From: Gammaproteobacteria bacterium
GTDB taxonomy: Bacteria > Pseudomonadota > Gammaproteobacteria > UBA4575
Direction of reading: 5' to 3'
Assembly (NCBI GenBank): GCA_011523795.1
Contig: WTFY01000010.1
Span: 124,001-188,000 of the forward strand
Length of the DNA stretch: 64,000 nt
Positions within the stretch are counted from its first letter, which is position 1, and each line of letters starts with the position of its first letter. A program made the translations under genes and the position numbers. Under the pieces are notes generated by a model that searched no databases, was not told the DNA's origin, and worked only from the letters and a program-made list of their open reading frames with translations. Below are positions 2,931 to 57,152 of the stretch, in pieces.

Positions 2931-3827
2931 TCAGGCCGCCCGGACCAGGTACGAGGCGAGGATTCCGACGAAGATCACCAGCCCGAAATACTGGTTGTTC
3001 AGGAAGGCGCGCAGGCAGCGAGGGGCTTCCCGGTTGCGGATCAGCACCTGCTGGTAGCAGAACAGGCCGGCGCCTGCGCCCAGCGCGGCATGGTAGGGCC
3101 AGCCCAGCCCCGCGAGCCAGCCCGTCGCGGCGAGTCCGGCAAGCACCAGCCCCTGCATCAGCCCTACCGCCAGCCGGTCGGCCGTACCTAACAGGAGGGC
3201 CGTGGACTTCACGCCGAGCTTGCGGTCGTCCTCGCGGTCGGCCATGGCGTACATGGTGTCGTAGGCCACGGTCCAGAGCACCGAGCAGGCGAACAGCAGC
3301 CACGCGACCGGTGGCGGGCTGTTGCCGGTCGTGGCCGTGTACGCCATCGGCACGGACCAGGCAAAGGCCACGCCAAGATGTACCTGCGGCAGGGCATGCA
3401 GCCTTTTCATGAACGGGTAGCTGGCGGCGAGTACGGCCGCGGCCAGGGCGAACTGGAGCGTAAGGGAGTTCAGCAGCAGCACCGCGAGCGCGAACGCCAC
3501 CCCGGCCAGCACGCACGCCACCAGTAGGGCCTCATGCGGGGCCAGCGCCCCGCTGGCCAGCGGGCGGTCCCGGGTACGGGCCACGTGCGGGTCGATGTCC
3601 CGGTCGGCAAAGTCGTTGATCGCACAGCCGGCCGCGCGCATCAGCACCACGCCCGCGACGAAGACCGCGAGAATGGTGGAGTCCGGCCTGCCGCCGGATG
3701 CCAGGAACAGGGCCCAGAGAGCGGGCCAGAGCAGCAGGAAGGTGCCGACCGGCTTGTCCAGGCGCACCAGCCTGGCGTACAGGACCAGCCTGCCGGGGGG
3801 CTTGATGGAGGCCGCGGGGCGCGTCAT
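2931..3827 (-). CDS. ubiA: 4-hydroxybenzoate polyprenyltransferase
   Basis: Inner-membrane prenyltransferase joining 4-hydroxybenzoate to a polyprenyl chain in ubiquinone synthesis. Both Asp-rich substrate/Mg motifs are present: NDFADRDID (about residues 71-79) and YDTMYAMADREDD (about 189-201). Multiple hydrophobic helices lie between and after them. The start MTRPAAS overlaps the aroE stop by 4 nt (ATGA), giving 298 residues against about 290 in E. coli; a longer frame inside aroE was rejected. Translational coupling with aroE is likely. No ubiC chorismate lyase is adjacent. Confidence 0.95.
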   Translation of the reverse strand: MTRPAASIKPPGRLVLYARLVRLDKPVGTFLLLWPALWALFLASGGRPDSTILAVFVAGVVLMRAAGCAINDFADRDIDPHVARTRDRPLASGALAPHEALLVACVLAGVAFALAVLLLNSLTLQFALAAAVLAASYPFMKRLHALPQVHLGVAFAWSVPMAYTATTGNSPPPVAWLLFACSVLWTVAYDTMYAMADREDDRKLGVKSTALLLGTADRLAVGLMQGLVLAGLAATGWLAGLGWPYHAALGAGAGLFCYQQVLIRNREAPRCLRAFLNNQYFGLVIFVGILASYLVRAA

Positions 3828-4651
3828 GCGGGAGGCTGCGGGCGCAGGCACCGGCAGGCCATCGCGGTATCCGGGCGCTTGCCCCGCCACAGGTAGAAGG
3901 ATTCCGCGGCCTGTTCGAGCAGCATCCCGAACCCGTCCACCACCCGCTCAGCGCCCTGCTCACGGCCCCATTGCATGAACGGGCTGGGGGTATCGCCGTA
4001 CATCAGGTCGTAGCAGCAGGTGTGCGGGCCGACCAGGCCTGCGGGCAGGGCCAGCTCGCGGTGCTGCAGGCCTGCCGAGGTGGCGTGCAGGATCAGGTCA
4101 AACGGCCTGGACGGGATTTCGTCCAGGCTGCAGCCCCATACGGGGCCGGCCTCCTGGAAGGTGTCCGCGATGGCCCGGGCGTTCGCCTTGGTCCGGTTTG
4201 CGATCAGCAGGATGTCGGGCCGTTCCCCGAGCAGGGGCTCGATGATGCCCCGTGCGGCGCCACCGGCGCCCAGCACCAGGATCTTGCGCGCGTGCAGCGG
4301 CAGCTGCAGGGACTTTTTCAGGTCGCGCAGCAGGCCGATCCCGTCCGTGTTCGCACCGATGCAGGTCCCGTCGTCCTGCAGAAGGAGGGTGTTGACGGCC
4401 CCGGCGTGGTCGGCAAGTTCCGTGATCTGGTCCACGAGCTCGCAGGCATCGTGCTTGAACGGCAGGGTCACGTTCAGGCCCTTGCCCCCGTCGTCCTGAA
4501 ACTGCCTCACGACCTGCGTGAAATCCTGTCGCGTGGCGAGGATCCTCTCGTAGGTAATGTGTTCGCCCGTCTGTTCGGCAAACAGGCGGTGAATGTCGGG
4601 GGACCGGCTGTGTGCGATCGGGTTGCCGATGACGCCATACCGGTCGGTCAT
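3824..4651 (-). CDS. aroE: Shikimate dehydrogenase
   Basis: NADP-dependent reduction of 3-dehydroshikimate to shikimate in aromatic amino acid synthesis. At 275 residues it is normal for AroE. Visible motifs are VIGNPIAHSRSP (substrate-binding N-terminus), NVTLPFKHDA with the catalytic lysine, GANTDGIGLL with the catalytic aspartate, and the Rossmann loop GAGGAARG. The start MTDRYGVIG was preferred to an upstream ATG eight codons earlier because it aligns with the family N-terminus. It overlaps ubiA by 4 nt, so the two form one transcription unit. Confidence 0.96.
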   Translation of the reverse strand: MTDRYGVIGNPIAHSRSPDIHRLFAEQTGEHITYERILATRQDFTQVVRQFQDDGGKGLNVTLPFKHDACELVDQITELADHAGAVNTLLLQDDGTCIGANTDGIGLLRDLKKSLQLPLHARKILVLGAGGAARGIIEPLLGERPDILLIANRTKANARAIADTFQEAGPVWGCSLDEIPSRPFDLILHATSAGLQHRELALPAGLVGPHTCCYDLMYGDTPSPFMQWGREQGAERVVDGFGMLLEQAAESFYLWRGKRPDTAMACRCLRPQPPA

Positions 4652-4786
4652 GTCTTTCACGCTAGCCTGCTGCATAAAATGGTGTTTGTGGAAGCCTTCT
4701 GTATAGCAGGAAATAGCCTGGAGATACAGTGCTCCGGTGAAAGTTGCAGGCAGTGTGCAGCCTGCAGCCTGACCCGGTGCATCCTA

Positions 4787-4815
4787 TGGACACTTTTTAG
4801 GCAAAATCTTACAAT
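4787..4815 (+). promoter_or_regulatory. Sigma70-type promoter for gloA
   Basis: TGGACA (4787-4792) and TACAAT (4810-4815) are separated by exactly 17 nt, each matching consensus at 5 of 6 positions. Transcription would start near 4822, leaving a leader of about 70 nt before the gloA ATG at 4893. aroE is divergent on the other side. Confidence 0.6.
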
Positions 4816-4892
4816 GGACTGGCCCGAAGGGCAGAAAATGACTGCAGTTCGGGCAAACGAGACGATTTGTACATGTTAGCGAGTGACTGAAC

Positions 4893-5288
4893 ATGGCTAA
4901 AATAATTCATTCGATGATTCGCGTGCTGGACGTGGAGCGCTCCAAAAGCTTTTATGAGGACGTATTTAACATAAAAGAAAAGCGCTACCTGGATTTTGAT
5001 GACTTCGCCCTGGTATACCTGGGCAATGATGAGAATGATGTCGAGATTGAGTTAACCCTGAACAAAGGCCAGACTGAGCCTTACACACACGGCAACGGCT
5101 ATGGACATATTGCGATGTGTGTTGATGACCTGGAGGCGGAACATGACCGCATCCAGTCCCTTGGCTACGAGCCCCAGGACATTGTTTCATTCAGTCCTGG
5201 AGGGGAACTGCTCGCAAAATTCTTCTTTATCAAGGACCCGGACGGGTACGAAATAGAAGTCCTGCAAAGACACGGCGCCTACCGGTAG
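4893..5288 (+). CDS. gloA: Lactoylglutathione lyase (glyoxalase I)-like VOC protein
   Basis: Isomerises the methylglyoxal-glutathione hemithioacetal to lactoylglutathione. The 131 residues form two VOC half-repeats. All four expected metal ligands can be placed by comparison with the E. coli enzyme: H6 (IIHSM), E53 (EIELT), H72 (YGHIA) and E122 (YEIEVL). The FxIKDPDGYEIE tail is diagnostic. It is monocistronic between divergent aroE and convergent monooxygenase genes. Other VOC activities cannot be excluded, but conserved ligands and length favour GloA. Confidence 0.88.
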   Translation: MAKIIHSMIRVLDVERSKSFYEDVFNIKEKRYLDFDDFALVYLGNDENDVEIELTLNKGQTEPYTHGNGYGHIAMCVDDLEAEHDRIQSLGYEPQDIVSFSPGGELLAKFFFIKDPDGYEIEVLQRHGAYR

Positions 5289-5391
5289 CAACCCTGCGGG
5301 GCCGTTCACCCCAGGCGATACAGGCCTGCATGAAACCCCGGAGAGCCGGGTGCCTGTTTAAGTGCTGGAGCCTGAAAGGGTTTCAGGGCCG

Positions 5392-6804
5392 TCAGGCTGT
5401 AGCTGCCGATTTTCTGGGTTCTCCAGACAGTTTCCACTCGGGCAATGACCGAAACGCCTGATGGTCTTTCGCAAGCCGCCGGTGCCCGGCACCGAAATAG
5501 TGTTCACGCAAGGTGCTCGTATCGTAATGCGTGCGCATGCGGCCGCGTCGCTGCAGCTCGGGCACCACCAGGTTCACGAAATCGATGTACCCCGTGGGGT
5601 GGTTGGCCACGACGAGGTTGAACCCGTCACAATCCGTCACTTCCATCCAGCGTTCCAGTTCGTCTGCGACCGTTGCCGGGCTGCCGATGAATTTTGGCAT
5701 CACACTGCCGATCGAGATGAACTCGGCCGCTTCCTGCAGCGTCCAATCGCGGTCCGGATCCGCTTCAGCGAAATAACTCAGCAGTCCCTGGATTGCATTG
5801 GTCTCGGCATTTGCCAGCTTTTCATTGACATCGATCTTGGACAGGTCCACCCCCACCCAGCCGCAGTACAGTGCCAGGGCTCCTTCGGGGCTTCTGTATT
5901 TTTTGCAGGTCTCGAATTTCAGACGGGCCTCTTCGTCGGTCGGTGCGACGATTACGGAAATGCCGGGAAATATCTTTACCTCGTTCGGGTCGCGGCCCTG
6001 CTTGGCGATGACTTCGCGAGTGGAGCGGATGATATTCTTGGAGACCTCCATGTTCGGGTGGATCGCAAAGATTGCCTCGGCGTGGCGTGCCGCGAACTCG
6101 ATCCCCCGGCCCGAACCGCCCGCCTGAAACAGGACCGGTGTACGTTGCCGGGACGGTTCGCACATGTGCGGGCCAGGGACATTGAAGTACTTGCCCCTGT
6201 GATTGATCTCGTGCACTTTGGCGGGGTCGGTATGGATGTCTTTCTCAATATCACGGATGACGGCATCTTCTTCCCATGAGTGTTCCCACAGCTTGTACAC
6301 CACGTCCATGTATTCATCCGCCCGGTCATAGCGTTCGTCATGCTCCATCTGTTCACCGATGCCGAAATTCTCGTTGGCGTCCGGCAGGTAGGAGGTGACG
6401 ATATTCCACGCGATGCGCCCCTTGGTCAGGTGGTCCAGGGTGGAGAACAGCTTGGCGGTCTGGTAAGGGGGGAAATAACTCGTGGAGAATGTGCAGGCAA
6501 AACCGATATGCCGGGTGGCATAGGCCATTGCGGAGATCACCAGGGTAGGGTCGTTGCTGGGGATTTGTGTGCTGTGCCGCACTGCGGTATCACGCGACCC
6601 CTTGTAGACATTGTAGGTTCCGTGCACATCTGCCAGGAACAGGCTGTCAAAACAGCCGCGTTCCAGGGTTTTGGCGATATCAACCCAGTAGTTCACGTCC
6701 TTGTAGCCCATCGAGGATTGATCAAGGGGGTGTTTCCATTGGCCCTTCGAATGAAAGCAGATGGAGCACATGGTAAAAGCATTCATGTGAATTTGTTTTG
6801 ACAT
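5392..6804 (-). CDS. NtaA/SnaA/DszA-family FMN-dependent monooxygenase
   Basis: Luciferase-like (TIM-barrel) flavin monooxygenase of the class that includes nitrilotriacetate monooxygenase A, DszA and pristinamycin synthase SnaA; it needs reduced FMN from a separate reductase. The 470 residues fit the family. Typical stretches are LERGCFDSLFLAD, GRIAWNIVTSYLPDANENFG, YDRADEYMDVVYKLWEHSW, HRGKYFNVPGPH and PVLFQAGGSGRG. The start MSKQIHMNAF was chosen over a longer frame with a non-homologous 46-residue extension. It is divergent from the MetX-like hydrolase at 6986. The substrate is unknown; such enzymes oxidise C-N or C-S bonds. No flavin reductase gene of the usual NtaB type is adjacent. Confidence 0.88.
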   Translation of the reverse strand: MSKQIHMNAFTMCSICFHSKGQWKHPLDQSSMGYKDVNYWVDIAKTLERGCFDSLFLADVHGTYNVYKGSRDTAVRHSTQIPSNDPTLVISAMAYATRHIGFACTFSTSYFPPYQTAKLFSTLDHLTKGRIAWNIVTSYLPDANENFGIGEQMEHDERYDRADEYMDVVYKLWEHSWEEDAVIRDIEKDIHTDPAKVHEINHRGKYFNVPGPHMCEPSRQRTPVLFQAGGSGRGIEFAARHAEAIFAIHPNMEVSKNIIRSTREVIAKQGRDPNEVKIFPGISVIVAPTDEEARLKFETCKKYRSPEGALALYCGWVGVDLSKIDVNEKLANAETNAIQGLLSYFAEADPDRDWTLQEAAEFISIGSVMPKFIGSPATVADELERWMEVTDCDGFNLVVANHPTGYIDFVNLVVPELQRRGRMRTHYDTSTLREHYFGAGHRRLAKDHQAFRSLPEWKLSGEPRKSAATA

Positions 6805-6825
6805 TTTCTTATAACCATGCTTTGA

Positions 6826-6874
6826 GTTGACACTAGATTGATTCAATGGTAATGCTGTGTGACTAATTGTCAAC
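6826..6874. promoter_or_regulatory. Inverted-repeat operator candidate between divergent genes
   Basis: GTTGACA (6826-6832) followed by CTAG, and its inverted partner CTAA-TTGTCAAC (6863-6874), frame about 30 nt inside the 181-nt divergent spacer between the flavin monooxygenase and the MetX-like hydrolase. The paired elements also resemble -35 hexamers pointing both ways, so this could be overlapping promoters, a regulator site, or both. No regulator gene lies in the island. Confidence 0.4.
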
Positions 6875-6985
6875 CAACATGCATGGTACGGCAGACATGT
6901 GTGCCGCCTTGCCTTCTTGGGCGCTGCCAGCCTGCCAAACAACTACTTACGACAATTGCCCATGCAAGGTTGAGGGAGCTGTCAA

Positions 6986-8038
6986 GTGGAAAACGAGTAT
7001 TATTCCCAGGAAAACCACGGCCCGTACTCGCTGTTTGAACTCGGCGATTTCCAGCTTGAATGCGGCAGGACGCTTGCAGACTGCCAGCTGGCGTATTCGT
7101 GTTTCGGCGAACTGAATTCGGAAAAGACCAATGCCATCGTGTTTACGGTCATGTTTTCAGGCACCAACAAGGCCATGGAAAAATATATCGGAAAGGGTCT
7201 GGCGCTGGATCCCGAGAAATACTTCATTGTCGTACCGAATCAGCTGGGCAGCGGCCTGTCGACCTCGCCTCACAATGCTCCCCCTCCTGATGAGGGGCCT
7301 GACTTTCCGCAAATCTCGATCGGGGATGACGTTCGTGCACAGCACAGGCTGCTGACTGAAAAGTTCGGCGTGAAAAGCATAGACCTGGTCCTTGGCTGGT
7401 CCATGGGTGGGCAGCAGACGTACGAATGGTGCGTGAGGTATCCGGAAATGGTCAGGCGGGCTGCCCCGATAGGGGGGACTGCGAGAACCACCCCGCATGA
7501 CTCCCTGTACGTGGAGGTGTTCTGTGAGGCGCTGAAGTCTGATCCGGCCTGGGAACACGGCCGGTACACGCAACCCCATGCAGTGGAACTGGGCCTGAAG
7601 CGGCTTGCACACGTGTTTGCCCTGATGGGCAACTGCACGGAATTCTACCGGCAGGAAAAGTGGACCGATCTGGGGATTGCCTCGCTGGACGGTTACCTGA
7701 GCGGTTTTTGGGAAACCTGGTTCAAGCCCATGGACCCGAACAACCTGCTGTGCATGGCCTCGAAATGGAAACGGGGGGACGTGTGTGCGGTTTCGGGAAA
7801 GAGCCTGAAGGACACGCTGGGGTCCATCAGGGCGAAAGTCTTTGTCATTGCCTTTACGCAGGACATGTTCATCCCGCTCACGGACTGCAAATATGAGCAG
7901 GAGATGATTCCGGGCAGCGAGTTGAGACAGGTCCCCACCCTGTGGGGCCATTTTGGCATGCTGGGGCTGGCCCAGGAGGACTTTGACCTGATCAACAGCA
8001 TCTTGTCCGAGGCCCTTCAGTCACCCTGCGCCGCCTGA
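6986..8038 (+). CDS. MetX-like alpha/beta hydrolase (homoserine acetyltransferase family)
   Basis: Alpha/beta-hydrolase with the nucleophile elbow GWSMGG (about S139), a likely catalytic Asp in TQDMFIPLTD and His in LWGHFGML, all arranged as in homoserine O-acetyltransferase MetX. The 350 residues fit the family, as does the opening pattern (LxxCxLAYxxFGELN). The GTG start at 6986 is supported by GAGGGAG seven nt upstream. The catabolic and transport context argues against methionine synthesis; it may hydrolyse an ester, amide or thioester. Convergent with livF. Family assignment is confident, activity is not. Confidence 0.85.
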   Translation: MENEYYSQENHGPYSLFELGDFQLECGRTLADCQLAYSCFGELNSEKTNAIVFTVMFSGTNKAMEKYIGKGLALDPEKYFIVVPNQLGSGLSTSPHNAPPPDEGPDFPQISIGDDVRAQHRLLTEKFGVKSIDLVLGWSMGGQQTYEWCVRYPEMVRRAAPIGGTARTTPHDSLYVEVFCEALKSDPAWEHGRYTQPHAVELGLKRLAHVFALMGNCTEFYRQEKWTDLGIASLDGYLSGFWETWFKPMDPNNLLCMASKWKRGDVCAVSGKSLKDTLGSIRAKVFVIAFTQDMFIPLTDCKYEQEMIPGSELRQVPTLWGHFGMLGLAQEDFDLINSILSEALQSPCAA

Positions 8039-8128
8039 TCCGGTATTCAAATCAGGGGTTGGCATGGGAAGGATGCAAGGCACCCGCAGCCGGCTTTTGG
8101 GTACAACCGTTCCGTGCACAGGGAAGAT

Positions 8129-8881
8129 TCAGGGGTTGCCCGAGCCGAGATAATATTCCTTGATATCATCACGCACGGACAGTTCGTCGGCTTTTCCGGA
8201 CACGGCGACATTTCCGTTTTCCAATACGTAGCAGTAGTTGGCATACTTCATGGCAAGGTTGATGTTCTGCTCGGCGATCAGAAAACTCACATTATTCTCC
8301 CGGTTCATCGACTTGATGATTTCGAAGATCTCCTGGATGATTACCGGGGCCAGTCCCATTGAGGGCTCGTCCAGCAGGACCAGGATGGGCTTTGTCATGA
8401 GTGCGCGACCAATCGCGAGCATTTGCTGCTCACCGCCCGAAGCGAGTCCCGCCCTGCTTTTGCGCCGCAGCTTGAGGCGTGGAAACCACTCGTAGACCTG
8501 TTCCAGGTCTGAAGCCATTCTGGCACGGTTTGGCTGGCGTACGAAAGCGCCGGCCATCAGGTTTTCTTCTACGGTCAGTTGAGGAAATACATGCCTGCCT
8601 TCCAGCACCTGGACGATGCCCTTGGCTACGAGGTCGGAAGCGGAATAGCGCTCGATCGACTCACCCTGCCAGGTGATCCTGCCCTTGGTGATTTCACCCC
8701 GCTCCTGCCCCAGGAGCTTGGAGATGGCCTTGAGGGTAGTGGTTTTCCCGGCGCCGTTGGCGCCGAACAGGGACACGATTGATCCCTGTTCGACGACTAT
8801 CGTTACATCCTGCAGGGCTAGTATTGCCTGCCCGTAGTGAACCTGGATATTTTCAACCTTGAGAAAATCGCCAGTGCTCAA
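8129..8881 (-). CDS. livF: Branched-chain-type ABC transporter ATPase (LivF-like)
   Basis: One of the two ATPases of a HAAT-type importer. Walker A GANGAGKTT (about residues 37-45), signature LASGGEQQM, Walker B ILVLLDEP and the switch His region (LIAEQN) are visible. At 250 residues it is slightly longer than typical LivF (~235). It is the last gene of the livG-livH-livM-binding protein-livF run on the minus strand, 19 nt after the binding-protein stop. Cytoplasmic face of the inner membrane. The cargo is inferred from the island to be a non-amino-acid organic compound, but this is unproven. Confidence 0.93.
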   Translation of the reverse strand: MSTGDFLKVENIQVHYGQAILALQDVTIVVEQGSIVSLFGANGAGKTTTLKAISKLLGQERGEITKGRITWQGESIERYSASDLVAKGIVQVLEGRHVFPQLTVEENLMAGAFVRQPNRARMASDLEQVYEWFPRLKLRRKSRAGLASGGEQQMLAIGRALMTKPILVLLDEPSMGLAPVIIQEIFEIIKSMNRENNVSFLIAEQNINLAMKYANYCYVLENGNVAVSGKADELSVRDDIKEYYLGSGNP

Positions 8882-8900
8882 GACGGTGCCCGCTGCTCAC

Positions 8901-10244
8901 TTACGCTTCGCACTCGGGCAGGTCGCGCTTCGGGACGCCCTGCTCTTTTGCAAGCTCCTCTGCCTTGGCAGTGAAGATGGGCACGAACAGCTGTGTGTCG
9001 ATCTCGATCCAGTCGGTCGAATCCCATCCGTCGCCGGCCCACTGAATGACTTTCGCCTGGATGCTCTCACCTTGATGGTTGCAGCGCGAGAGCTTCAACG
9101 GGGCCAGCAGCCCGACCGCACCGATATCTTCGAGTCGTGCTTGATCGATGTTCAGGTTCTCGTAGGCCCACTTGGCTTCCTCACCGGTAATCGGCCTGTT
9201 TCCGAACTTCGTGTGGCCGGTTCTCAGGACCTCGGAATAGATCAGCGACGTGATCACGCCAAAGTTGTAGTAGACCGTGCCGAACCGCTCCATTTCCTTC
9301 AGGTCGCCCTTGCCCTTGTCATACAGGGTTTCCTTGATTCGCTTGAGAAGTTCATAATCGGTTCCCGGCGGGAAGATGTTGACTCCGGTGTAGCCAATCG
9401 CAGCATCGCCAGCCGGGCGCACATCGTCTTCTGAAGTCGCCCAGATGTCACCGATGATGTGATCGACCGGAAATCCCGTGCGCTTGGCCGTTTTGATGCC
9501 TACCGGGGTCATTGCCCCCCAGCTGCGGAAGAATACCCAGTCGGCCTTTTCGTTGCGAATGCGTTGCCACTGGGCCTCTTGCTGGATTCCCGGATGGGCC
9601 ACCGGAATCTGTACGTCCTTGAATCCGTACTGCTCGGACAGCATTTTCATCGGGGTGATGGTTTCTCGGCCGTATCCGGAATCATGGTACAGCGTCACAA
9701 TCACCTGGTCCTTGAGCTTGTCATGACCCCCGAGGCGCTGGGCGATATACTCGACAACAATCTGCGCTTCTCTCCAGTAGTCGAACATCACCGAGAACTG
9801 GTATTCGTTGAATCGCCCGTCAATGGCCGTTGCGGTACCACCGCCGGGTGTCATGTGTGGCATTTTGTGCTTGCGATTCCTCTCTACCGTCGCCGCGAAG
9901 AGTCCCGATGACATCCCCGTGATGGTCGCGGTGGGTGCACCCTGGTGTCCCCCGACGTAACGGTCGAAGCACTCGATGCCCTTGTCGATGTCGTATGAAG
10001 TTTCACACTCCACCATGTAGTTGAGAACTCCATTCACGCCACCCTCGGTTTCGTTGAGGTAATCCAGCATGTCCTTTTGTCCGGCTACGATTGAGGTCCC
10101 CACATTTGCGTAAGGTCCGGTCCGGTACGTGAACAGGGGATAGAACTGCTCCCCTTCATGCGCACCGGCTGCAAAGACCGCCTGCAAGCTGGTCGAAACC
10201 AGCACGGCGGCAAGCAGCGCATAGCTTAGTTGACGTAAATACAT
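8901..10244 (-). CDS. Periplasmic substrate-binding protein, LivK/Peripla_BP_6 type
   Basis: Secreted receptor for the adjacent importer. There is a clear Sec signal peptide (LLAAVLVSTSLQAVFAA, cleavage near residue 26). The mature part is a two-lobed type-I binding fold with GTSIVAGQKDMLDYLNETEGG and a long central domain; 447 residues is larger than classical LivK (~370). The start is well supported by AGGAGGA seven nt upstream of the ATG. It sits between livM and livF but is separated from livM by 176 nt, which contain a hairpin. Size and sequence suggest amide/urea-like or aromatic ligands rather than leucine, but that is inference. Confidence 0.9.
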   Translation of the reverse strand: MYLRQLSYALLAAVLVSTSLQAVFAAGAHEGEQFYPLFTYRTGPYANVGTSIVAGQKDMLDYLNETEGGVNGVLNYMVECETSYDIDKGIECFDRYVGGHQGAPTATITGMSSGLFAATVERNRKHKMPHMTPGGGTATAIDGRFNEYQFSVMFDYWREAQIVVEYIAQRLGGHDKLKDQVIVTLYHDSGYGRETITPMKMLSEQYGFKDVQIPVAHPGIQQEAQWQRIRNEKADWVFFRSWGAMTPVGIKTAKRTGFPVDHIIGDIWATSEDDVRPAGDAAIGYTGVNIFPPGTDYELLKRIKETLYDKGKGDLKEMERFGTVYYNFGVITSLIYSEVLRTGHTKFGNRPITGEEAKWAYENLNIDQARLEDIGAVGLLAPLKLSRCNHQGESIQAKVIQWAGDGWDSTDWIEIDTQLFVPIFTAKAEELAKEQGVPKRDLPECEA

Positions 10245-10290
10245 TGTAATTTCCTCCTAATAGTTATTATTTTATGCACTTATTCAAAGC

Positions 10291-10309
10291 CTGCTCCCGA
10301 GAGGGGCAG
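10291..10309 (-). other. Intercistronic hairpin between livM and binding-protein gene
   Basis: CTGCTCC and GGGGCAG form a 7-bp stem (one wobble pair) around a 5-nt loop in the 176-nt spacer. There is no U-tract after it in the direction of transcription, so it is more like an mRNA processing or stabilising hairpin than a terminator. Higher expression of the downstream binding-protein gene than of the permeases would be expected. Confidence 0.35.
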
Positions 10310-10419
10310 ACCTAAATATGCATGGCATCACCTCCTGCGATTTTTGTTCCTGAACAACATATCCCCAAAGGCCGATGGATCAGTACCCGTCCCGGACGGA
10401 TTCGGCATCCGGCGTGAGA

Positions 10420-11493
10420 TCACGCTGTAACCCGAAGCCGCCTGCACGCTCCACTCAAAGCAGCTGCAGCCCGTTGAAGCAGCTTGTAAAGGCCATCCGG
10501 CTCTTTGATCAGGATGTAAACAATCATAGCACCGAATAGTACTCGCTGCAGATTTGTGGTAATTCCGATATTCACATGTTCGGTCAGTCCGAGGCCGACC
10601 ACAGCCAGGTTGAGGAAAATAGGTGTCAGCACGATAAAGGCCGCGCCGATGAAGTTTCCGAATATGCTTGCCGTGCCGCCAATGATCACGATGAACAGGA
10701 TCTCGAAGGACTTGTCGAGATCAAAGGAGTGGGCATTGCTCGTCTGCAGGTAGCAGAATCCCCAGAGTACACCCGCGATGCCGCAGTAAAAGGAACTGAT
10801 GCCAAATGCCAGAAGCTTGCGGGCGCGAACCTTGATGCCAATGACGGTGGCCGAGGTCTCCATGTCACTTACTGCAATCCATTCCCGGCCAATGCGACTG
10901 CGCACGATGCTGTACGCGAGCGCAACCAGCGCAAGGGTGGTCACGCTGACGATCATGTAACGGCCATGCACTGACTTGAGGTCCATGCCGAAGAGCTCGA
11001 GCCGCGGAGCGGTGATGGTCAAGGACAGGTTATCGTTGCAGAACCAGGAAAAATTGGTGAACAGCCACTCGAAAAAAAACTGTGCCCCGAGGGTGGATGC
11101 CGCGAGGTAGAACCCCTTGATCCGCAGGCTAGGCAGCCCGAACAGGACACCGAATACCGCTGCAATCAGACCGGCCAGGATGATCACAACCGGCAGGGGA
11201 AGCACCGGTACCCGCAACAGCAGGTTGTAGGCCGAGAAGGCTCCCACGGCCATGAAGGCCGCCGAACCGATCGAGACACACCCGGTGAATCCCATCAGCA
11301 AATTGAGGCCGACGCCCGCGATACCCATCACCAGCATCGGGATCATGATGGAGTTGATCCAGTAATCGTTGAAACTGAGCGGCACGGCAAGTGCAGCGAT
11401 CGTCAACGCCCCGATGATGCCTGGCTTGACCAGGCCGGAACGCTGGGAGAGCGGGAGCAGGTCCGCGCGCGGTGAAGTCTGGGTCTCCGGCAT
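10420..11493 (-). CDS. livM: Branched-chain-type ABC permease (LivM-like)
   Basis: Inner-membrane permease subunit, 357 residues with about ten hydrophobic segments. The family hallmark region GAFSAYNLL and the loop LRIKGFYLAASTLGAQFFFEWLF followed by the AxxxxG coupling region (REWIAVSDMETSATVIGIKVRARKLLAFGISSFYCGIAGVL, given here only for position, about residues 205-245) are typical of LivM. It begins 3 nt after livH ends, so the two permeases are tightly coupled. The N-terminus has a polar leader before the first membrane helix, as in other LivM proteins. Confidence 0.93.
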   Translation of the reverse strand: MPETQTSPRADLLPLSQRSGLVKPGIIGALTIAALAVPLSFNDYWINSIMIPMLVMGIAGVGLNLLMGFTGCVSIGSAAFMAVGAFSAYNLLLRVPVLPLPVVIILAGLIAAVFGVLFGLPSLRIKGFYLAASTLGAQFFFEWLFTNFSWFCNDNLSLTITAPRLELFGMDLKSVHGRYMIVSVTTLALVALAYSIVRSRIGREWIAVSDMETSATVIGIKVRARKLLAFGISSFYCGIAGVLWGFCYLQTSNAHSFDLDKSFEILFIVIIGGTASIFGNFIGAAFIVLTPIFLNLAVVGLGLTEHVNIGITTNLQRVLFGAMIVYILIKEPDGLYKLLQRAAAALSGACRRLRVTA

Positions 11494-11496
11494 GGC

Positions 11497-12372
11497 TCAG
11501 ACCCGTTCGATCTCGCGCTCACCGAACAGGCCGGCAGGCTTGATCAGGAGAAAGAACACGGCCAGAATATAGGCAAACCAGGCGGATACGCTGCCCCGGA
11601 AGATGGGGCCCAGATAGAAGTCGGCTAGGCTTTCGGTCGCCCCGACCAGCAGGCCGGCCACGATGGCGCCGATCATGGACGAGAACCCCCCGATAATGAG
11701 TACCGGCAATGCCTTGAGGGCCGACAGGGTCAGCGAAAACTGGACCCCCTGGCGTGCCCCCCAGAGAAGCCCGGCGGCCAGGGCCACGAATCCTGCCACG
11801 CTCCACACAATCCGCCACACTTGCGGAAGCTTGATGCCGATCGATTGCGCCGCCAGCACATCGTCGGCCACCGCGCGCAGCGAGATGCCGATGCGCGTGG
11901 TGTTGAAGACGAACGAAATGACGACCACCATGAGAACGGCCATGGCGGTTGCAAACAGGTCAAACTCGCTCAGCCACAGGTCACCGATCTGCAGGGTGCC
12001 GTCCGCCACGCCAAGTTCCAGGATATGCACATCGGTGCCCATCGCCAGTTGCGCAATTCCCTCGATCATGAAACTCAACCCCAGCGTGGCCACGAACAGT
12101 ACCATCGGGTCACGATTCGCCATGGGGCGAAGCATCATCCGCTCGATGAGCACGGCACAGACCACCATGACGATCATCACGATGAGCAGCGCGATCCAGA
12201 ACGGAATGCCTGCTTCCACAAACGTCACATACATCAGTGCAGTGAACAGCACCATGGAACCCTGGGCGAAATTGAACACGCCCGATGCCTTGTAGATGAG
12301 AACGAAGCCAAGCGCCACGGAGGAGTACATCACCCCGGCAAGCAACCCACCCAGCAGCACCTCAAGAAACAT
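11497..12372 (-). CDS. livH: Branched-chain-type ABC permease (LivH-like)
   Basis: Partner permease, 291 residues, with about eight membrane segments. The N-terminus GLLAGVMYSSVALGFVLIYKASGVFNFAQG is the LivH signature region (about residues 9-38), and RAVADDVLAAQSIGI is the ATPase-coupling loop. It lies between livG (17 nt upstream) and livM (3 nt downstream). Confidence 0.94.
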   Translation of the reverse strand: MFLEVLLGGLLAGVMYSSVALGFVLIYKASGVFNFAQGSMVLFTALMYVTFVEAGIPFWIALLIVMIVMVVCAVLIERMMLRPMANRDPMVLFVATLGLSFMIEGIAQLAMGTDVHILELGVADGTLQIGDLWLSEFDLFATAMAVLMVVVISFVFNTTRIGISLRAVADDVLAAQSIGIKLPQVWRIVWSVAGFVALAAGLLWGARQGVQFSLTLSALKALPVLIIGGFSSMIGAIVAGLLVGATESLADFYLGPIFRGSVSAWFAYILAVFFLLIKPAGLFGEREIERV

Positions 12373-12389
12373 CCTCGCCCCCCGTCCCG

Positions 12390-13184
12390 TTATTCATACA
12401 CTTCTCCCAGGTAAGCCTTGATCACGCCCGGGTCGTTTCGTACCTGTTCGGGCATGCCGTCGGCAATCTTGCTCCCATAGTCCAGTACCACGATACGGTG
12501 CGCCAGCCCCATGACGATACCGATATCATGCTCGATGAGCACGATCGTGGTCTTGAAATGCGAGTTCACCTCCGAGACGATGCGGCTCATTTCCTGCTTC
12601 TCGTCCTGGTTCATTCCCGCCATGGGTTCGTCGAGCAGCAGCAGCCTGGGTTCCGAGACCAGCGCCCGTGCAAGGTCCACCCGTTTCTGGATGCCGAACG
12701 GGAGGGTCGATACGATGGTGCCGGCGTGTTCCTCGAGCTTGAGGAAGGCGATGACCCTGCTGGCCCAGGCGAGGAACCGCCTGTTTTCGGCGCGGTCGCG
12801 GCCGACATGGAATATGTTTTCCCAGAACGTGGTTTTCCCGTGGCGCGCAAGGCCTGCCAGGATGTTGTCCAGCACCGTCAGCCTTTCAAACAGCGCATTG
12901 TGCTGGAACGTCCTTCCGATCCCGCGCCGCGCCGCATCAAACGGGGTGATTTTCTGGAAATGCCTGCCGTCGAAGACCACTTCGCCATGCTGTGGCCGGT
13001 AGACACCGTTGATCACATTGAGCAGTGAACTCTTTCCCGCACCGTTCGGGCCGATAAGTGCGCAGATTTCGCCCTCCTGGACCTCCATGCTGACGTTGGA
13101 GAGCGCCTTCACTCCCTTGAACGACAGGGAAATTTCATGGATTTCCAAAAGCGCTTCTTTGCCGGCGGGCAGGTCTTCGGGCAT
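12390..13184 (-). CDS. livG: Branched-chain-type ABC transporter ATPase (LivG-like)
   Basis: Second ATPase of the importer and first gene of the transcription unit. Walker A GPNGAGKSS, Walker B LLLLDEPMAGM and a C-terminal YLGEVYE typical of LivG are present. The signature is degenerate (STLPFGIQKRVD in place of LSGGQ); LPFGxQ at this position is in fact typical of LivG proteins. The start MPEDLPAG (264 residues) was chosen because GGAGGGG lies seven nt upstream; an ATG seven codons earlier lacks this. It is divergent from the AlkB-like gene across a 287-nt regulatory region. Confidence 0.93.
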   Translation of the reverse strand: MPEDLPAGKEALLEIHEISLSFKGVKALSNVSMEVQEGEICALIGPNGAGKSSLLNVINGVYRPQHGEVVFDGRHFQKITPFDAARRGIGRTFQHNALFERLTVLDNILAGLARHGKTTFWENIFHVGRDRAENRRFLAWASRVIAFLKLEEHAGTIVSTLPFGIQKRVDLARALVSEPRLLLLDEPMAGMNQDEKQEMSRIVSEVNSHFKTTIVLIEHDIGIVMGLAHRIVVLDYGSKIADGMPEQVRNDPGVIKAYLGEVYE

Positions 13185-13255
13185 CAGAACCCCTCCATTT
13201 GACAAGTACTCTGCATATAAGAATTCTTGGCAGTACTCGACAAGTCATTGTATAC

Positions 13256-13273
13256 AGTTTTCAGGAGAAAACT
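13256..13273. promoter_or_regulatory. Perfect palindrome, operator candidate
   Basis: AGTTTTC-AGGA-GAAAACT is a perfect 7-bp inverted repeat with a 4-nt spacer, lying in the divergent region between livG and the AlkB-like gene. Its size fits a TetR- or GntR-type dimer site. Position upstream of both promoters suggests joint control of uptake and oxidation genes. No regulator is encoded nearby. Confidence 0.45.
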
Positions 13274-13297
13274 AACCTTAGTATACCCATGCTGAAT

Positions 13298-13327
13298 TTG
13301 ACATTGCCGGCGCCGCGTTGCTACGAT
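13298..13327 (+). promoter_or_regulatory. Sigma70-type promoter for the AlkB-like operon
   Basis: A perfect -35 TTGACA (13298-13303), an 18-nt spacer and a -10 TACGAT (13322-13327, 4 of 6). Transcription would start near 13334, giving a leader of about 138 nt before the ATG at 13472. It would drive the three-gene unit AlkB-like, molybdopterin enzyme and reductase. Confidence 0.5.
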
Positions 13328-13471
13328 GGAACTAGCGCCTAAAATAAATCGACAGATCTTGAGAAGGGTGCTGACTACCCTGCTATCAAACCAGGAAGGT
13401 GCAAGAGAAGCGGCGAGAACGAGGTTTTGGCGCTGTGGAAGTGTGTCATTGACTGGTTTGAGGGTACGGCT

Positions 13472-14653
13472 ATGTGGAAATATCTGAAGTTTGGGTGGCT
13501 GAACTGGATTGTGACCCTGGGCACCGCCGTCAGCTTCGTCGCAGGCGGCTGGTGGATGTGGTTCGGTGTCGGTTTCATGTTCATCATAGGGGTCGGAGGT
13601 GAACTCCTCAGCAAGGAGGACAACTCGGAACCCGGTTACAGTTTCGGCTGGATCTACGACTGGATCGTTTACACGATCTCCCTGTTCCTGCTCGTATCCC
13701 TGATTACTTTCGTCTGGGCGTTCAGCGGGGCTGACCTGCTCGGCATCGGGGCCTTCACGCTGGAACTGTTCGGGTATGACGCCCTGGCCGCGCGCGGTGA
13801 AAACGCTTGGTACCACTACACGGGTGCGGCGCTGTCCATCGGGATCACGCTGGGTGTACAGGGCATCGTCATGGGGCATGAACTGGTTTCGCGCACCGAG
13901 GACGCCGTGGACACGAGGATCGGCGAGCTGGTGTTCGCCCTGATGTTCGGGACGAACTTTGCCGTCGAGCATGTGTACGGGCATCACAAGAACCTGGGAT
14001 ATCCCGAGCACGACGCGGTCACCCCGATCCGGGGCACGCACTTCTACCAGTTCCAGACGGTCGGGACCTGGACCCAGTGGAAAAGCGGCTGGGAGGTTGA
14101 AAAGAGGCGCCTGAATGATGCCGGACAGTCTGTGTTTTCATTCGGCAACCGGATCGTGCAGGCCTGGCTGCGGGGCGGGATCGTCATGGCACTGGTGCTG
14201 GCCGGCGGCGGATGGGTCTGCTTCCTGTATTATCTCCTGGCCATTTGCTACGCCAAATTCATTCTGGAAGGACTCAACTTCTTCTCTCACTACGGGCTGG
14301 TCCGGGAAAAGGGTCAGCCGATCACTCCGCGTGTGACCTTCTCCAGCAACAATGCCTGGGGCAACTGGATTCTGCTGAATCTTGGCCGTCACGGCGCGCA
14401 TCATGCGGACAACAGCCGCTACCAGGATCTCAGGGCGTACAAGGACGATCCGCAGTGTCCCTTCGGGTACCTGACGATGACGGTCATTGCATGGATTCCC
14501 CCCCTGTTCTTCAAGGTGATCGTTCCCATGCTCAAGGAATGGGACGAAAAATACGCCACGGCTGCGGAGCTGGAAATCACCCGGAAGGAAAACCAGGAAA
14601 GCGGGATCAAGGAACTGGAGAATTTCGTACCCCGACGCATGGCTTCGGCCTGA
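13472..14653 (+). CDS. AlkB-like membrane di-iron oxygenase with altered first His box
   Basis: Integral-membrane non-haem di-iron enzyme of the alkane hydroxylase/xylene monooxygenase family; 393 residues with several hydrophobic helices in the N-terminal third. Histidine boxes (this start numbering): GHELVS at 135-140, EHVYGHH at 166-172, NFFSHYGL at 269-276 and LGRHGAHH at 304-311. The first box normally reads HELxHK; here the second His is Ser140. The rest matches AlkB closely. The ATG at 13472 has GAGGG seven nt upstream; a TTG 15 codons earlier has poor spacing. Electrons probably come from the reductase encoded two genes downstream. The substrate is unknown. Confidence 0.85.
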   Translation: MWKYLKFGWLNWIVTLGTAVSFVAGGWWMWFGVGFMFIIGVGGELLSKEDNSEPGYSFGWIYDWIVYTISLFLLVSLITFVWAFSGADLLGIGAFTLELFGYDALAARGENAWYHYTGAALSIGITLGVQGIVMGHELVSRTEDAVDTRIGELVFALMFGTNFAVEHVYGHHKNLGYPEHDAVTPIRGTHFYQFQTVGTWTQWKSGWEVEKRRLNDAGQSVFSFGNRIVQAWLRGGIVMALVLAGGGWVCFLYYLLAICYAKFILEGLNFFSHYGLVREKGQPITPRVTFSSNNAWGNWILLNLGRHGAHHADNSRYQDLRAYKDDPQCPFGYLTMTVIAWIPPLFFKVIVPMLKEWDEKYATAAELEITRKENQESGIKELENFVPRRMASA

Positions 14654-14678
14654 TCACACGCAAGAAGGAGGCATGGCC

Positions 14679-16838
14679 ATGGAACCGATCACTGTCAGAC
14701 CCGAGCCTCCACCCGGCCATACCCAGCACCACGTGGTATGCCCGCATGACTGCCCGGACGGCTGTTCGATGCTCGTCACGGTGAATGATGACACCGGCAA
14801 GGCGACCAGGGTGGAAGGCGATCCCAGCAATCCCATTACACGGGGCTACCTGTGCAACAAGGTCAACCATTACCTGGATCTTGTGTACAACGACAGCCGG
14901 GTGCTGTACCCCCACAAGCGAATCGGACCGAAAGGGCCCGGGGCGAAATTCGAGAGAATCTCCTGGGACGAGGCACTGGAAACGGTCACGGACAATTTCA
15001 AGTCGGTCATCGATGAGCATGGACCCGAAGCGGTCCAGCCGTATTCGTATTCGGGCACCCTGGGGCTGATCCATTTCTGGGGGATGGACCAGCGGTTCTG
15101 GAACCGGATGGAAGCGGCAAGGCTGGACCAGTCCATCTGTGCATGGGCCGGGATCTGGACCCATATCTACACCTATGGGCTGGCGGACGGGCCGAGCACG
15201 GAAGACATCCCGGATGCAGACATGGTGATTCTGTGGGCGAACAACATCGTCAGTACGGGCGTACACCTGATACCGTTCGTCGAGGAAGCAAGGGAACGCG
15301 GCGCCACGATCGTTGCGGTGGATCCGAGGAAAACCCGGACCACCGAGTTTGCGGACTGGCACATCCAGCCCCGTCCGGGCACGGACGGAGCCCTGGCGCT
15401 GGGGATGATGAAACTCATCGTGGACGCCGGGCTGCATGATGAGGCGTTCCTGAGGGAATACACGCATGGCTGGGAGCAGCTGATCCAGGACGAACTTCCG
15501 AAATGGCCGCTGGAGAAAGTGTCCCGCATCACGGGAATCGGAGCCCAGGAAATCGAAAAGTTCGCCCGGGCGTTCGCCGCGAGCAAGAAAACGAATATCC
15601 GGACCGGCTGGGGCCTCAACCGGCACAGGAACTCGGGCCAGACCTGCCGCGCGGTCATGCTTCTGCCCTGCATCACCGGTGCCTGGCGTGAAAAATGCGG
15701 GGGCTGCCTGAGCTGGACCGGCGAGGAAAACTGGATGCGGCTGCAACTGGGCAAGCTGCAGCGGCCGGACCTGGGCGACCGGGCGTCCAAGCGGACCATC
15801 AACATGGTGCAGATCGGCAGGGCCCTGGCGGACAACCAGGACATGAACGGCGAATCGCTCGACCCGCCGATCAAGTCACTTTTCGTGTACAACTCGGACC
15901 CCGCGAACTGTGCACCGAACACCAACAACGTACGCAAGGGCCTGATGCGTGACGATCTTTTCGTGGCGGTGCATGACGTGGTCTGGACCGACACCTGCCT
16001 GTATGCGGACATCGTGCTGCCGGCCGATACGCAGCTGGAACGCTGGGACCTGCATGCCCCCTGGGGCCACTACATCTACAACCTGAGCCAGCCGTGTATC
16101 AAGCCGCTCGGGGAGAGCGTGTGCAACTCGGAACTGTTCAGGATGCTGGCCGGGAAGATGGGGTATGACGAGGATGCCTTCAGGCAGTCTGACGAGGACA
16201 TGATCAGGGAAATCATCTGCGACGAGGGACACCCGGGCATGGAGGGCATCACGCTTGAAGGGCTCAAGCAGAACGGCTGGATGCGCTGCAATGTCGACTC
16301 GCCGAACCGGGACCGGCTGAAACACGGCTGGCCGACCGAGACGGGCAAGATCAACATCTGGTCCGAGGATGTCAAGAACCAGGGGCAGTCCCCTCTGCCC
16401 ACGTACGTGCCGGAAGAGGAAGGCCAGGAAAACTATGAACGGAGGAAGAAGTACCCGCTGCAGGTGCTGAGCAACGCACCGCATTACTTCATCGGTGATT
16501 CGTTCCAGTCCGTGCCCAGGCTGCAGGCGATGATGTCGAGGCCCACCGTGGAGCTGTGCCCTGAAGACGCCTTCGAGCGGGGCATCGAGGATGGTGACCT
16601 GTGCCGCCTTTACAACGACCGCGGTGAAACCTATGCCCATGCCGTGATCATCGACGGGCTGCTCCCCGGGGTTTGCAGTACCCAGAAACAGTTCAAGGGC
16701 AGTAACACGCCCGGGGGAGTGAATGCGAATGCGCTGATATCGGAGGACTTGACGGATATCGGCTGGAGTCCCTCGTTTTATTCGTGCCTGGCACAGGTGG
16801 AAAAAGCGCAGAGCGAACAGGACCCGTCAACGCCCTAG
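14679..16838 (+). CDS. Molybdopterin oxidoreductase (DMSO reductase superfamily)
   Basis: 719-residue bis-MGD enzyme. N-terminal 4Fe-4S motif CPHDCPDGC followed by GYLCNK supplies the four cysteines (about residues 20-60). A probable Mo-ligand Cys lies in LDQSICAWAG, although the ligand assignment is by analogy. WANNIVSTGVH and VAVDPRKTRTTEFAD are typical cofactor-binding stretches; the C-terminal dinucleotide-binding domain spans from LQVLSNAPHYFIGD. There is no Tat signal, so it is cytoplasmic. AAGGAGG is seven nt from the ATG at 14679 and only one from the ATG at 14673, so the former was chosen. No dedicated membrane anchor is encoded; the partner is probably the downstream reductase. Confidence 0.88.
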   Translation: MEPITVRPEPPPGHTQHHVVCPHDCPDGCSMLVTVNDDTGKATRVEGDPSNPITRGYLCNKVNHYLDLVYNDSRVLYPHKRIGPKGPGAKFERISWDEALETVTDNFKSVIDEHGPEAVQPYSYSGTLGLIHFWGMDQRFWNRMEAARLDQSICAWAGIWTHIYTYGLADGPSTEDIPDADMVILWANNIVSTGVHLIPFVEEARERGATIVAVDPRKTRTTEFADWHIQPRPGTDGALALGMMKLIVDAGLHDEAFLREYTHGWEQLIQDELPKWPLEKVSRITGIGAQEIEKFARAFAASKKTNIRTGWGLNRHRNSGQTCRAVMLLPCITGAWREKCGGCLSWTGEENWMRLQLGKLQRPDLGDRASKRTINMVQIGRALADNQDMNGESLDPPIKSLFVYNSDPANCAPNTNNVRKGLMRDDLFVAVHDVVWTDTCLYADIVLPADTQLERWDLHAPWGHYIYNLSQPCIKPLGESVCNSELFRMLAGKMGYDEDAFRQSDEDMIREIICDEGHPGMEGITLEGLKQNGWMRCNVDSPNRDRLKHGWPTETGKINIWSEDVKNQGQSPLPTYVPEEEGQENYERRKKYPLQVLSNAPHYFIGDSFQSVPRLQAMMSRPTVELCPEDAFERGIEDGDLCRLYNDRGETYAHAVIIDGLLPGVCSTQKQFKGSNTPGGVNANALISEDLTDIGWSPSFYSCLAQVEKAQSEQDPSTP

Positions 16839-16852
16839 ACTAGGAGGTTAGA

Positions 16853-17965
16853 TTGTCCGTGCAATTTCGGAGCCTGCCGGCGGCAGACCCTCGAATTCAA
16901 AACAGTCGGGTCCGGGTCAGCCAGGGAGTCATCACCGGCACCCGGAAACTCACGTACGACACGATGGAACTGGTGGTGCAGTGCGACCCGGCCTCCGCCC
17001 CGCTGAGCGGTACGGCCGGGCAGTATGCGATCCTGGCCACACCAAGCCTGAGCAAGCCCCGCGCCTACTCGTTTGCCATGGCGCCCGAGAACGAAGAGGC
17101 CGGCCGGCATACGTTCTTCGTCAAGCTGATTCACGGTGGCGAGTTTTCTGGGTGGCTGTTCAGGGCGGACCGGACCGGAGAGCCCATCACCCTGACCGGC
17201 CCGCTCGGGCAGTTCGTTCTCGATTCTTCCGCTGACCCGATGGTGTGCATTGCCGGCGGCAGCGGCATGAGCGCGATCAAGGCCATCCTTGAACATGCCG
17301 CGAACCGGTCCGTGAAGCGGGACGCCCTTTTCCTGTACGGGGCCAGGACCCAGGCCGACCTCTACTGCCAGGACGAAATCGAATCGATCAAGCGGAAATG
17401 GAACGCAGACTACCGGTTTGATTGCGTGAACGTTCTTTCGATGGAGCCGAAAGACAGCGGCTGGGCCGGCGCAAGGGGGCTGGTGACAGAGTATTTTGAA
17501 AGCGCGTACCTGCGGGACGGAAAATTCGGTATCGGCAACTCGCGGGCTTACCTGTGCGGCCCCCCGCCGATGGTGGATGCCGCGGTATCCGTGCTGGTTG
17601 ACAGCGGGATGGCACCCGGGCGGATCCATTACGACAAGTTCGAGGACGCGAGTTCGCCTGCGCCCGTCATTGACAATTCAAAATGCGTACTGTGTGATGA
17701 ATGCCTGCTGGTCAAGCCGATTCAAAACTGCATTGTCGAGGCATCGGGCTTCGTGCTCGACAAGAACGACGGGGTAGAGGGTTACTTGCGTGTGAATCCG
17801 GCACGAACTTCCGGCCTGTATTACAACTCGCTTTACATCGATGAGGATGAATGCATACGCTGCCTGGCCTGTGTGCATCAATGCCCGACCAATGCAATTT
17901 CCCCTTCCAACTCGGTGAATCCCGCCATGCTCCGGAACATGAGGACCGGGGCGCCCCCGGCCTGA
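16853..17965 (+). CDS. FAD/NAD(P) oxidoreductase with C-terminal 2[4Fe-4S] ferredoxin
   Basis: 370-residue electron-transfer protein. The FAD-binding domain contains RAYSFA (about residues 76-81), and the NAD-binding domain contains GGSGMSAIKAIL and ends with CGPPPMV, as in oxygenase reductases. Instead of the usual N-terminal 2Fe-2S plant-type ferredoxin it carries a C-terminal bacterial dicluster domain, with CVLCDEC plus a distal Cys and CIRCLACVHQCP. The TTG start has AGGAGG five nt upstream. Spacing of 14 nt after the molybdopterin gene shows one operon. It could serve the AlkB-like oxygenase, the Mo enzyme, or link the two. Confidence 0.88.
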   Translation: MSVQFRSLPAADPRIQNSRVRVSQGVITGTRKLTYDTMELVVQCDPASAPLSGTAGQYAILATPSLSKPRAYSFAMAPENEEAGRHTFFVKLIHGGEFSGWLFRADRTGEPITLTGPLGQFVLDSSADPMVCIAGGSGMSAIKAILEHAANRSVKRDALFLYGARTQADLYCQDEIESIKRKWNADYRFDCVNVLSMEPKDSGWAGARGLVTEYFESAYLRDGKFGIGNSRAYLCGPPPMVDAAVSVLVDSGMAPGRIHYDKFEDASSPAPVIDNSKCVLCDECLLVKPIQNCIVEASGFVLDKNDGVEGYLRVNPARTSGLYYNSLYIDEDECIRCLACVHQCPTNAISPSNSVNPAMLRNMRTGAPPA

Positions 17966-18006
17966 TTTTCCCGGCAGGCGTAGCCAGTCCTGCAGCAGGG
18001 CCTCCT

Positions 18007-19134
<1,128 letters not shown>

Positions 19135-24920: not shown

Positions 24921-25104
24921 GACAGCATGACTGCATACAGGGGTGCGAAGCGCTAGCAGGATTGTTCAAGCGAATTTCCGGCATGCCCTGCCCGATGGAA
25001 AATGGTCACTGATCGTCACGCCTAGCCTCTTGGATGCTCAAGTTTCTCGCAAAGACTCAACACCTTGCTGAAAGGTGCAGACAATAACAGGAGGGGTATA
25101 CGAC

Positions 25105-55301: not shown

Positions 55302-57152
<1,851 letters not shown>

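What the first reader, a model, noticed from the sequence alone, without database searches (positions are those of the whole stretch)
5392..17965. Catabolic island joining an ABC importer, a flavin monooxygenase, an AlkB-like oxygenase and a molybdopterin enzyme
Nine genes for import (complete Liv-type system), two different oxygenases, a MetX-like hydrolase, a Mo-oxidoreductase and a two-cluster reductase lie together, with two divergent control regions carrying inverted repeats and no regulator. The combination is not a pathway I know. It points to uptake and oxidative breakdown of a charged or polar organic compound, possibly with C-S or C-N bonds given the NtaA/SnaA-type enzyme.
Basis: partly seen in the sequence, partly recalled or inferred. 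Interest (0 to 1): 0.7.

Follow-up and report, generated by a model that had tools for sequence, protein, structure and literature searches.

The report
Composite organosulfur-type uptake and oxidation island
Ten genes wedged between two housekeeping genes form a patchwork rather than one new pathway: an importer of the kind that elsewhere travels with sulfur-scavenging enzymes, an esterase, and a separate membrane-oxygenase/molybdenum-enzyme operon whose oxygenase lacks an iron-binding histidine found in every relative examined.

Summary
The genes are real: ten intact ORFs (not nine) at 5392-17965. They fill the aroE-hemB junction. Those genes are adjacent in six genomes of other genera of the family, 13.3 kb apart here, and 7.9 kb apart in a same-genus genome whose insert shares only the MekB-type hydrolase (79%). 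So the island is an assembly at a variable site.

Module 1 is LivGHM-SBP-LivF plus an NtaA/DmoA-family flavin monooxygenase (LLM). The SBP joins a fully supported clade of rhizobial plasmid SBPs. In 10 of 10 inspected loci with intact flanks this transporter type sits beside an NtaA/DmoA-type LLM or SfnG (dimethylsulfone monooxygenase) and an SfnB-like flavoprotein. Uptake and C-S cleavage of a small organosulfur compound is the best reading. The LLM is in another clade with a changed pocket, so its substrate is unknown.

Module 2 is AlkB-Mo-Red. Mo-Red is a second copy of a pair whose Mo gene is in all 19 genomes of the order. The AlkB-like protein is at most 38% identical to anything found in about 85,000 species. 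One of nine iron-binding His is Ser; all 114 relatives keep it.

A single joint pathway is not supported; the C-S hint is, by context. The inverted repeats are at chance level.

The parts
4676..18006 (.). Insert between aroE (3824-4675) and hemB (18007-19002)
   Evidence: aroE and hemB adjacent in six genomes of other genera of the family; 7.9 kb apart in same-genus G277
5392..6801 (-). LLM: NtaA/DmoA-family FMN-dependent monooxygenase (469 aa)
   Evidence: TIGR03860 545 bits, cut-off 280; nearest relative 63%, G613; pocket differs from DmoA and LadA
6986..8038 (+). MekB/CgHle-type alpha/beta hydrolase (350 aa, GTG start)
   Evidence: PRK07581 445 bits, cut-off 332; 5e4y E=7e-107; 79% ortholog at the same site in G277
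8129..8881 (-). LivF-type ATPase
   Evidence: 67% to the Sinorhizobium BG8 locus L102
8901..10244 (-). Periplasmic substrate-binding protein (SBP)
   Evidence: PF13458; 4ru0 E=5e-136; clade 100/99 with rhizobial plasmid SBPs
10420..11493 (-). LivM-type permease
   Evidence: PF02653; 61% to L102
11497..12372 (-). LivH-type permease
   Evidence: PF02653; 66% to L102
12390..13205 (-). LivG-type ATPase (TTG start listed)
   Evidence: PF00005 and PF12399; 71% to L102
13427..14653 (+). AlkB/XylM-like membrane protein; likelier start ATG 13472; Ser155 in place of the second His of box 1
   Evidence: PF00487; 8f6t E=1e-39; at most 38% to other genomes; Ser155
14673..16838 (+). Cytoplasmic-type molybdopterin oxidoreductase (Mo) with N-terminal 4Fe-4S motif and Cys156 as likely metal ligand
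   Evidence: PF04879, PF00384, PF01568; homologues in 19/19 genomes of the order
16853..17965 (+). Red: FAD/NAD(P)H reductase domain plus two C-terminal 4Fe-4S motifs (TTG start listed)
   Evidence: PF00970, PF00175, Fer4; all eight Cys conserved with five homologues

Best explanation
A composite island at a variable hemB-aroE junction, holding two units and a resident esterase. Unit 1 (inferred): the SBP and LivHMGF import a small organosulfur compound (sulfone, sulfoxide or sulfonate type). The NtaA/DmoA-family LLM, using FMNH2 made by a reductase encoded elsewhere, inserts oxygen next to sulfur and cleaves the C-S bond, giving sulfur for assimilation and an aldehyde. Unit 2 (inferred): Red passes NAD(P)H electrons through FAD and two 4Fe-4S clusters to the Mo-enzyme, and possibly to the AlkB-like protein of the same gene run. 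That protein is not expected to be a normal alkane hydroxylase, because one of nine iron ligands is missing. MekB occurs at this site independently of the rest and hydrolyses an ester. Shown: gene content, separate histories, insertion site, synteny of the transporter with sulfur-scavenging genes, the lost His. Inferred: substrates, reactions, electron routes.
For: aroE-hemB adjacency in other genera and a different insert in G277. LivGHM-SBP-LivF beside an LLM or SfnG and an SfnB-like flavoprotein in 10 of 10 loci with intact flanks, with SfnB at 609 bits in G561. SBP tree. An SBP paralog near SfnG and an MsuE-like reductase in the same assembly and in G286, where the closest Mo homologue follows on the same contig. 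LLM His17 aligns with the sulfone-binding His20 of BdsA (PMC5819316). Mo-Red elsewhere as a pair.
Against: The LLM is outside the clade linked to this transporter and lacks BdsA His316 and DmoA His17, Gln18 and GLG366-368. No SfnB-like gene or flavin reductase is in the island. The ten loci came from the best hits of two searches, not a random sample. No sulfur-related gene other than the LLM is in the island. No expression or ligand data exist.
Confidence: 0.5

Rival explanations
1. No shared function at all: a hotspot that collected unrelated genes, some of them decaying (AlkB).
For: MekB alone in G277; Mo-Red and AlkB never together elsewhere; different insert beside hemB in G274; Ser155 in AlkB.
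Against: Liv gene order is intact and an LLM of the right family is present; all ORFs are open; MekB is under purifying selection (dN 0.15, dS 1.3).
Confidence: 0.28
2. Ketone or ester catabolism: the LLM acts as a type II Baeyer-Villiger monooxygenase and MekB hydrolyses the ester, as MekA and MekB do in methyl ethyl ketone breakdown (pathway from memory).
For: LLM and MekB are divergently transcribed neighbours. In Methylibium PM1 a 49% MekB relative follows an NAD(P)/FAD-dependent oxidoreductase.
Against: The G277 ortholog of MekB has no LLM beside it. The LLM is in the LadA/DmoA group, not a known Baeyer-Villiger type. The transporter's links are to sulfur genes.
Confidence: 0.12
3. A hydrocarbon island: a LadA-like LLM and AlkB both hydroxylate alkanes, followed by further oxidation.
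For: LLM 52% to the LLM of plasmid pLW1071, which I know as LadA; AlkB-like fold family.
Against: An ABC importer is not expected for alkanes. AlkB lacks an iron ligand described as invariant and indispensable (PMC10110569). Its relatives pair with a XylA-type reductase, not a Mo-enzyme. No alcohol or aldehyde dehydrogenase is in the island.
Confidence: 0.06

Closest known systems
sfn-type organosulfur loci (sfnAB with predicted ABC transporters in Pseudomonas putida; SfnG/MsuE/Liv/SfnB on Rhizobium phaseoli plasmid)
   Same: LivGHM-SBP-LivF order; transporter clade; a group C flavin monooxygenase beside it
   Different: LLM of another clade; no SfnB, no FMN reductase, no RibB in the island; MekB lies between LivF and the LLM on the other strand
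DmoA / LadA / DszA-BdsA group of FMN-dependent monooxygenases
   Same: TIGR03860 member; ADV, Tyr63, Gln79, Ser137, Tyr138 kept; His at the BdsA His20 place
   Different: Phe for DmoA His17, His for Gln18, SVM for GLG366-368; Trp for BdsA His316
AlkB / XylM membrane di-iron monooxygenases
   Same: PF00487 fold family; eight of the nine iron-ligand His
   Different: Ser155 in box 1; followed by a Mo-enzyme; no XylA-type [2Fe-2S] reductase or rubredoxin in the island
MekB / CgHle acetyl-ester hydrolases
   Same: Closest solved structures; GxSxGG motif and conserved Asp and His in the alignment
   Different: No Baeyer-Villiger MekA beside it
Acetylene hydratase / formate dehydrogenase-like Mo/W enzymes
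   Same: N-terminal 4Fe-4S motif and an aligned Cys ligand
   Different: No His after the Cys as in formate dehydrogenase; far below every curated cut-off; partner is a fused FAD/NAD and 2x4Fe-4S reductase

Membership tests
sfn-type LLM + Liv organosulfur locus | Transporter of the clade found with SfnG, NtaA/DmoA-type LLM or SfnB-like genes, in G-H-M-SBP-F order | tested here: met
sfn-type LLM + Liv organosulfur locus | LLM of the transporter-linked clade | tested here: not met
   Window LLM groups with G613 outside it (97/93 for the pair)
sfn-type LLM + Liv organosulfur locus | SfnB-like flavoprotein in the locus | tested here: not met
   None among the ten genes
sfn-type LLM + Liv organosulfur locus | Growth on, or induction by, organosulfur compounds | not testable with these tools
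   Needs experiment
NtaA/DmoA subfamily (TIGR03860) | Score above the curated cut-off | tested here: met
   545 against 280 bits
Dimethylsulfide monooxygenase DmoA | Binding residues listed in PMC9259527, His17 among those kept in all homologues | tested here: not met
   F16/H17 and SVM instead of H17/Q18 and GLG
AlkB alkane monooxygenase | Nine iron-coordinating His | tested here: not met
   Ser155 in box 1; His in all 114 relatives examined; PMC10110569
Formate dehydrogenase | Cys/Sec followed by the catalytic His | tested here: not met
   Cys156 followed by Ala; 244 bits against a cut-off of 666
MetX homoserine O-acetyltransferase | Score above the MetX cut-off | tested here: not met
   160 against 500 bits
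MekB/CgHle-type ester hydrolase | Closest homology and conserved catalytic motif | tested here: met
   activity not tested

The most novel reading that the evidence does not exclude
AlkB-Mo-Red is a new redox unit in which one NAD(P)H reductase with two 4Fe-4S clusters feeds both a molybdenum enzyme and a membrane di-metal protein with an altered eight-histidine site, acting on a product of LLM-catalysed organosulfur cleavage.
Probability: 0.1. Interest if true: 0.65.

Novelty: new variant of a known kind. Interest (0 to 1): 0.36.

Why it matters
It links a Liv-type importer clade, usually annotated as amino-acid transport, to organosulfur monooxygenases across several proteobacterial groups, which makes its ligand directly testable. 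It also supplies a natural AlkB-family protein lacking an otherwise invariant iron ligand, and an uncharacterised Mo-Red pair whose Mo gene is in every genome of its order. As a pathway the island is not a new kind.

Tried and rejected
MetX identity (rejected). DmoA identity (pocket test failed). Formate dehydrogenase for the Mo-enzyme (no catalytic His). Alkane island (Ser155). Inverted repeats as operators (chance level). A direct-repeat or tRNA boundary for the insertion (none found). RNA elements (none). GC as proof of foreign DNA (stretches of other contigs of the same assembly are 49-50%). A mixed assembly as the cause of that GC spread: not favoured, because clpB and topA each have one full-length copy with genus-typical identities. 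Paper searches for sponge symbionts with these genes gave nothing useful, and the organism was not identified. No structure was predicted, because sequence comparison already fixed the folds and a metal-free model would not settle Ser155.

Full report
WHAT IS THERE. Ten intact genes occupy 5392-17965. On the minus strand are LLM (5392-6801) and LivF, SBP, LivM, LivH, LivG (8129-13205). On the plus strand are a MekB-type hydrolase (6986-8038) and AlkB-Mo-Red (13427-17965, gaps of 19 and 14 bases). Pfam and NCBIfam support the family assignments. There is no regulator gene.

INSERTION SITE. The genes lie between aroE and hemB. In six genomes of other genera of the family (G044, G185, G278, G279, G283, G285) those two genes are adjacent. 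Here they are 13.3 kb apart. In same-genus G277 they are 7.9 kb apart, and that insert shares only the MekB ortholog (79%) with the island. In same-genus G274 other genes (a metal ABC transporter) follow hemB, and aroE is on another contig. The island is therefore an assembly at a variable junction, not an old block. No flanking repeat or tRNA was found. Island genes have 55-61% GC against 65-71% for most flanking genes, but stretches of contigs C7 and C17 of the same assembly have 49-50%. clpB (C7) and topA (C18) each have one full-length copy with genus-typical identities, so the assembly does not look like a mixture, and GC is not proof of transfer.

MODULE 1: IMPORTER AND LLM. The SBP belongs to a clade (100/99) with plasmid SBPs of Phyllobacterium and Rhizobium (L103, L104, L271) and is far from the SBPs inherited in its own family (the window row has a long branch). 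The gene order G-H-M-SBP-F is the same in rhizobia. Identities of LivG, LivH, LivM, SBP and LivF to the L102 locus are 71, 66, 61, 58 and 67%. I inspected ten loci with intact flanks. Eight carry an NtaA/DmoA-type LLM (L102, L104, L105, L271, L272, L273, L276, L243) and two carry SfnG (L274, L275). All ten carry an SfnB/DszC-like flavoprotein. In L243 it is SfnB at 609 bits, cut-off 431. The P. putida sfn operon is described as having sfnAB separated by predicted ABC transporters (PMC8234197), so the kind is known; I found no report of the transporter's ligand. On contig C17 of the window's own assembly an SBP paralog lies near SfnG (555 bits, cut-off 383) and an MsuE-like FMN reductase. In G286 a DmoA-like LLM, an SBP, SfnG, an MsuE-like reductase and the closest homologue of the window's Mo-enzyme share one contig. 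This context favours a small organosulfur ligand.

THE LLM ITSELF. It is about 50% identical to LadA and DmoA, but its nearest relative is a 63% LLM of G613 that lies near an apparent aldehyde dehydrogenase gene (judged by eye). That pair is outside the Liv/SfnB-linked clade. It keeps most DmoA binding residues but has Phe for His17, His for Gln18 and SVM for GLG366-368 (residue list from PMC9259527; test). Its His17 aligns with BdsA His20, one of the docked sulfone-binding residues, whose change to Phe costs more than 90% of activity (PMC5819316; alignment). BdsA His316 is Trp here. A sulfone-like substrate is suggested, not shown. The FMNH2 supply must come from elsewhere in the genome.

MEKB. 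Its best solved relatives are 5e4y and 5d6o, which I recall as MekB and CgHle. Because the G277 ortholog sits at the same site with no LLM, its pairing with the LLM here looks secondary. dN 0.15 against dS 1.3 indicates purifying selection.

MODULE 2: ALKB-MO-RED. Mo-Red pairs (Mo 61-69%, Red 51-58%) are found in relatives, mostly without AlkB and among unrelated neighbours; in G044 and G185 a distant AlkB-like gene (27-28%) lies about 3 kb from the pair, with unrelated genes between. A Mo homologue is in 19 of 19 genomes of the order, and second copies are rare. The window's pair is thus a second, diverged copy. The Mo-enzyme has an aligned Cys ligand but no formate-dehydrogenase-type His. 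The AlkB-like protein has no relative above 38% among the GTDB contigs scanned; those relatives usually lie by a XylA-type reductase and never by this Mo-enzyme. At the second His of box 1 it has Ser155, codon TCG, more than one base from any His codon. All 114 relatives examined have His there; nine apparent exceptions are alignment gaps with the His in the next column. Since the nine His are described as invariant and indispensable (PMC10110569), ordinary AlkB activity is unlikely, though a changed metal site is possible.

CONCLUSION. One common pathway is not supported: the parts have separate histories, no other genome found has the combination, and one of the two oxygenases is atypical at its metal site. 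The main uncertainty is the ligand of the SBP and the substrate of the LLM. The scan behind one search leaves out the window's own genome and possibly very near ones. The ten loci were picked from the best hits of two searches, so the 10 of 10 figure is not from a random sample.

Noticed in passing
G000 contigs C7 and C17 (L091, L098, L099) against the window: Strong GC heterogeneity within one assembly: 49-50% on stretches of C7 and C17, 65-71% in most housekeeping genes of the window, although clpB and topA both show genus-typical identities.
   Followed up: partly
L265 (G286:C28): A locus joining a DmoA-like LLM, flavin reductase, NtrC-type regulator, SBP, SfnG, MsuE-like reductase and a second Mo-enzyme with no Red gene beside it.
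   Followed up: partly
L247:4633-12507 (G277): The other insert at the hemB-aroE junction: a weakly HipA-like ORF, the MekB ortholog and a putative helix-turn-helix/ATPase-type protein.
   Followed up: partly
window 32284-33897 (-) and 57757-59370 (+): Two paralogous 537-aa genes on opposite strands, about 25 kb apart, of unknown function.
   Followed up: no
window 25075-26022, 41383-42531, 42697-43662 (+): Three paralogous outer-membrane beta-barrel-like genes.
   Followed up: no
window 30268-31122 (-) and 55302-57164 (-): Two lipoprotein-like ORFs with a run of Gly-Asp repeats after the signal region.
   Followed up: no
window 26464-27744 (-): HipA-like ORF, judged by eye.
   Followed up: no
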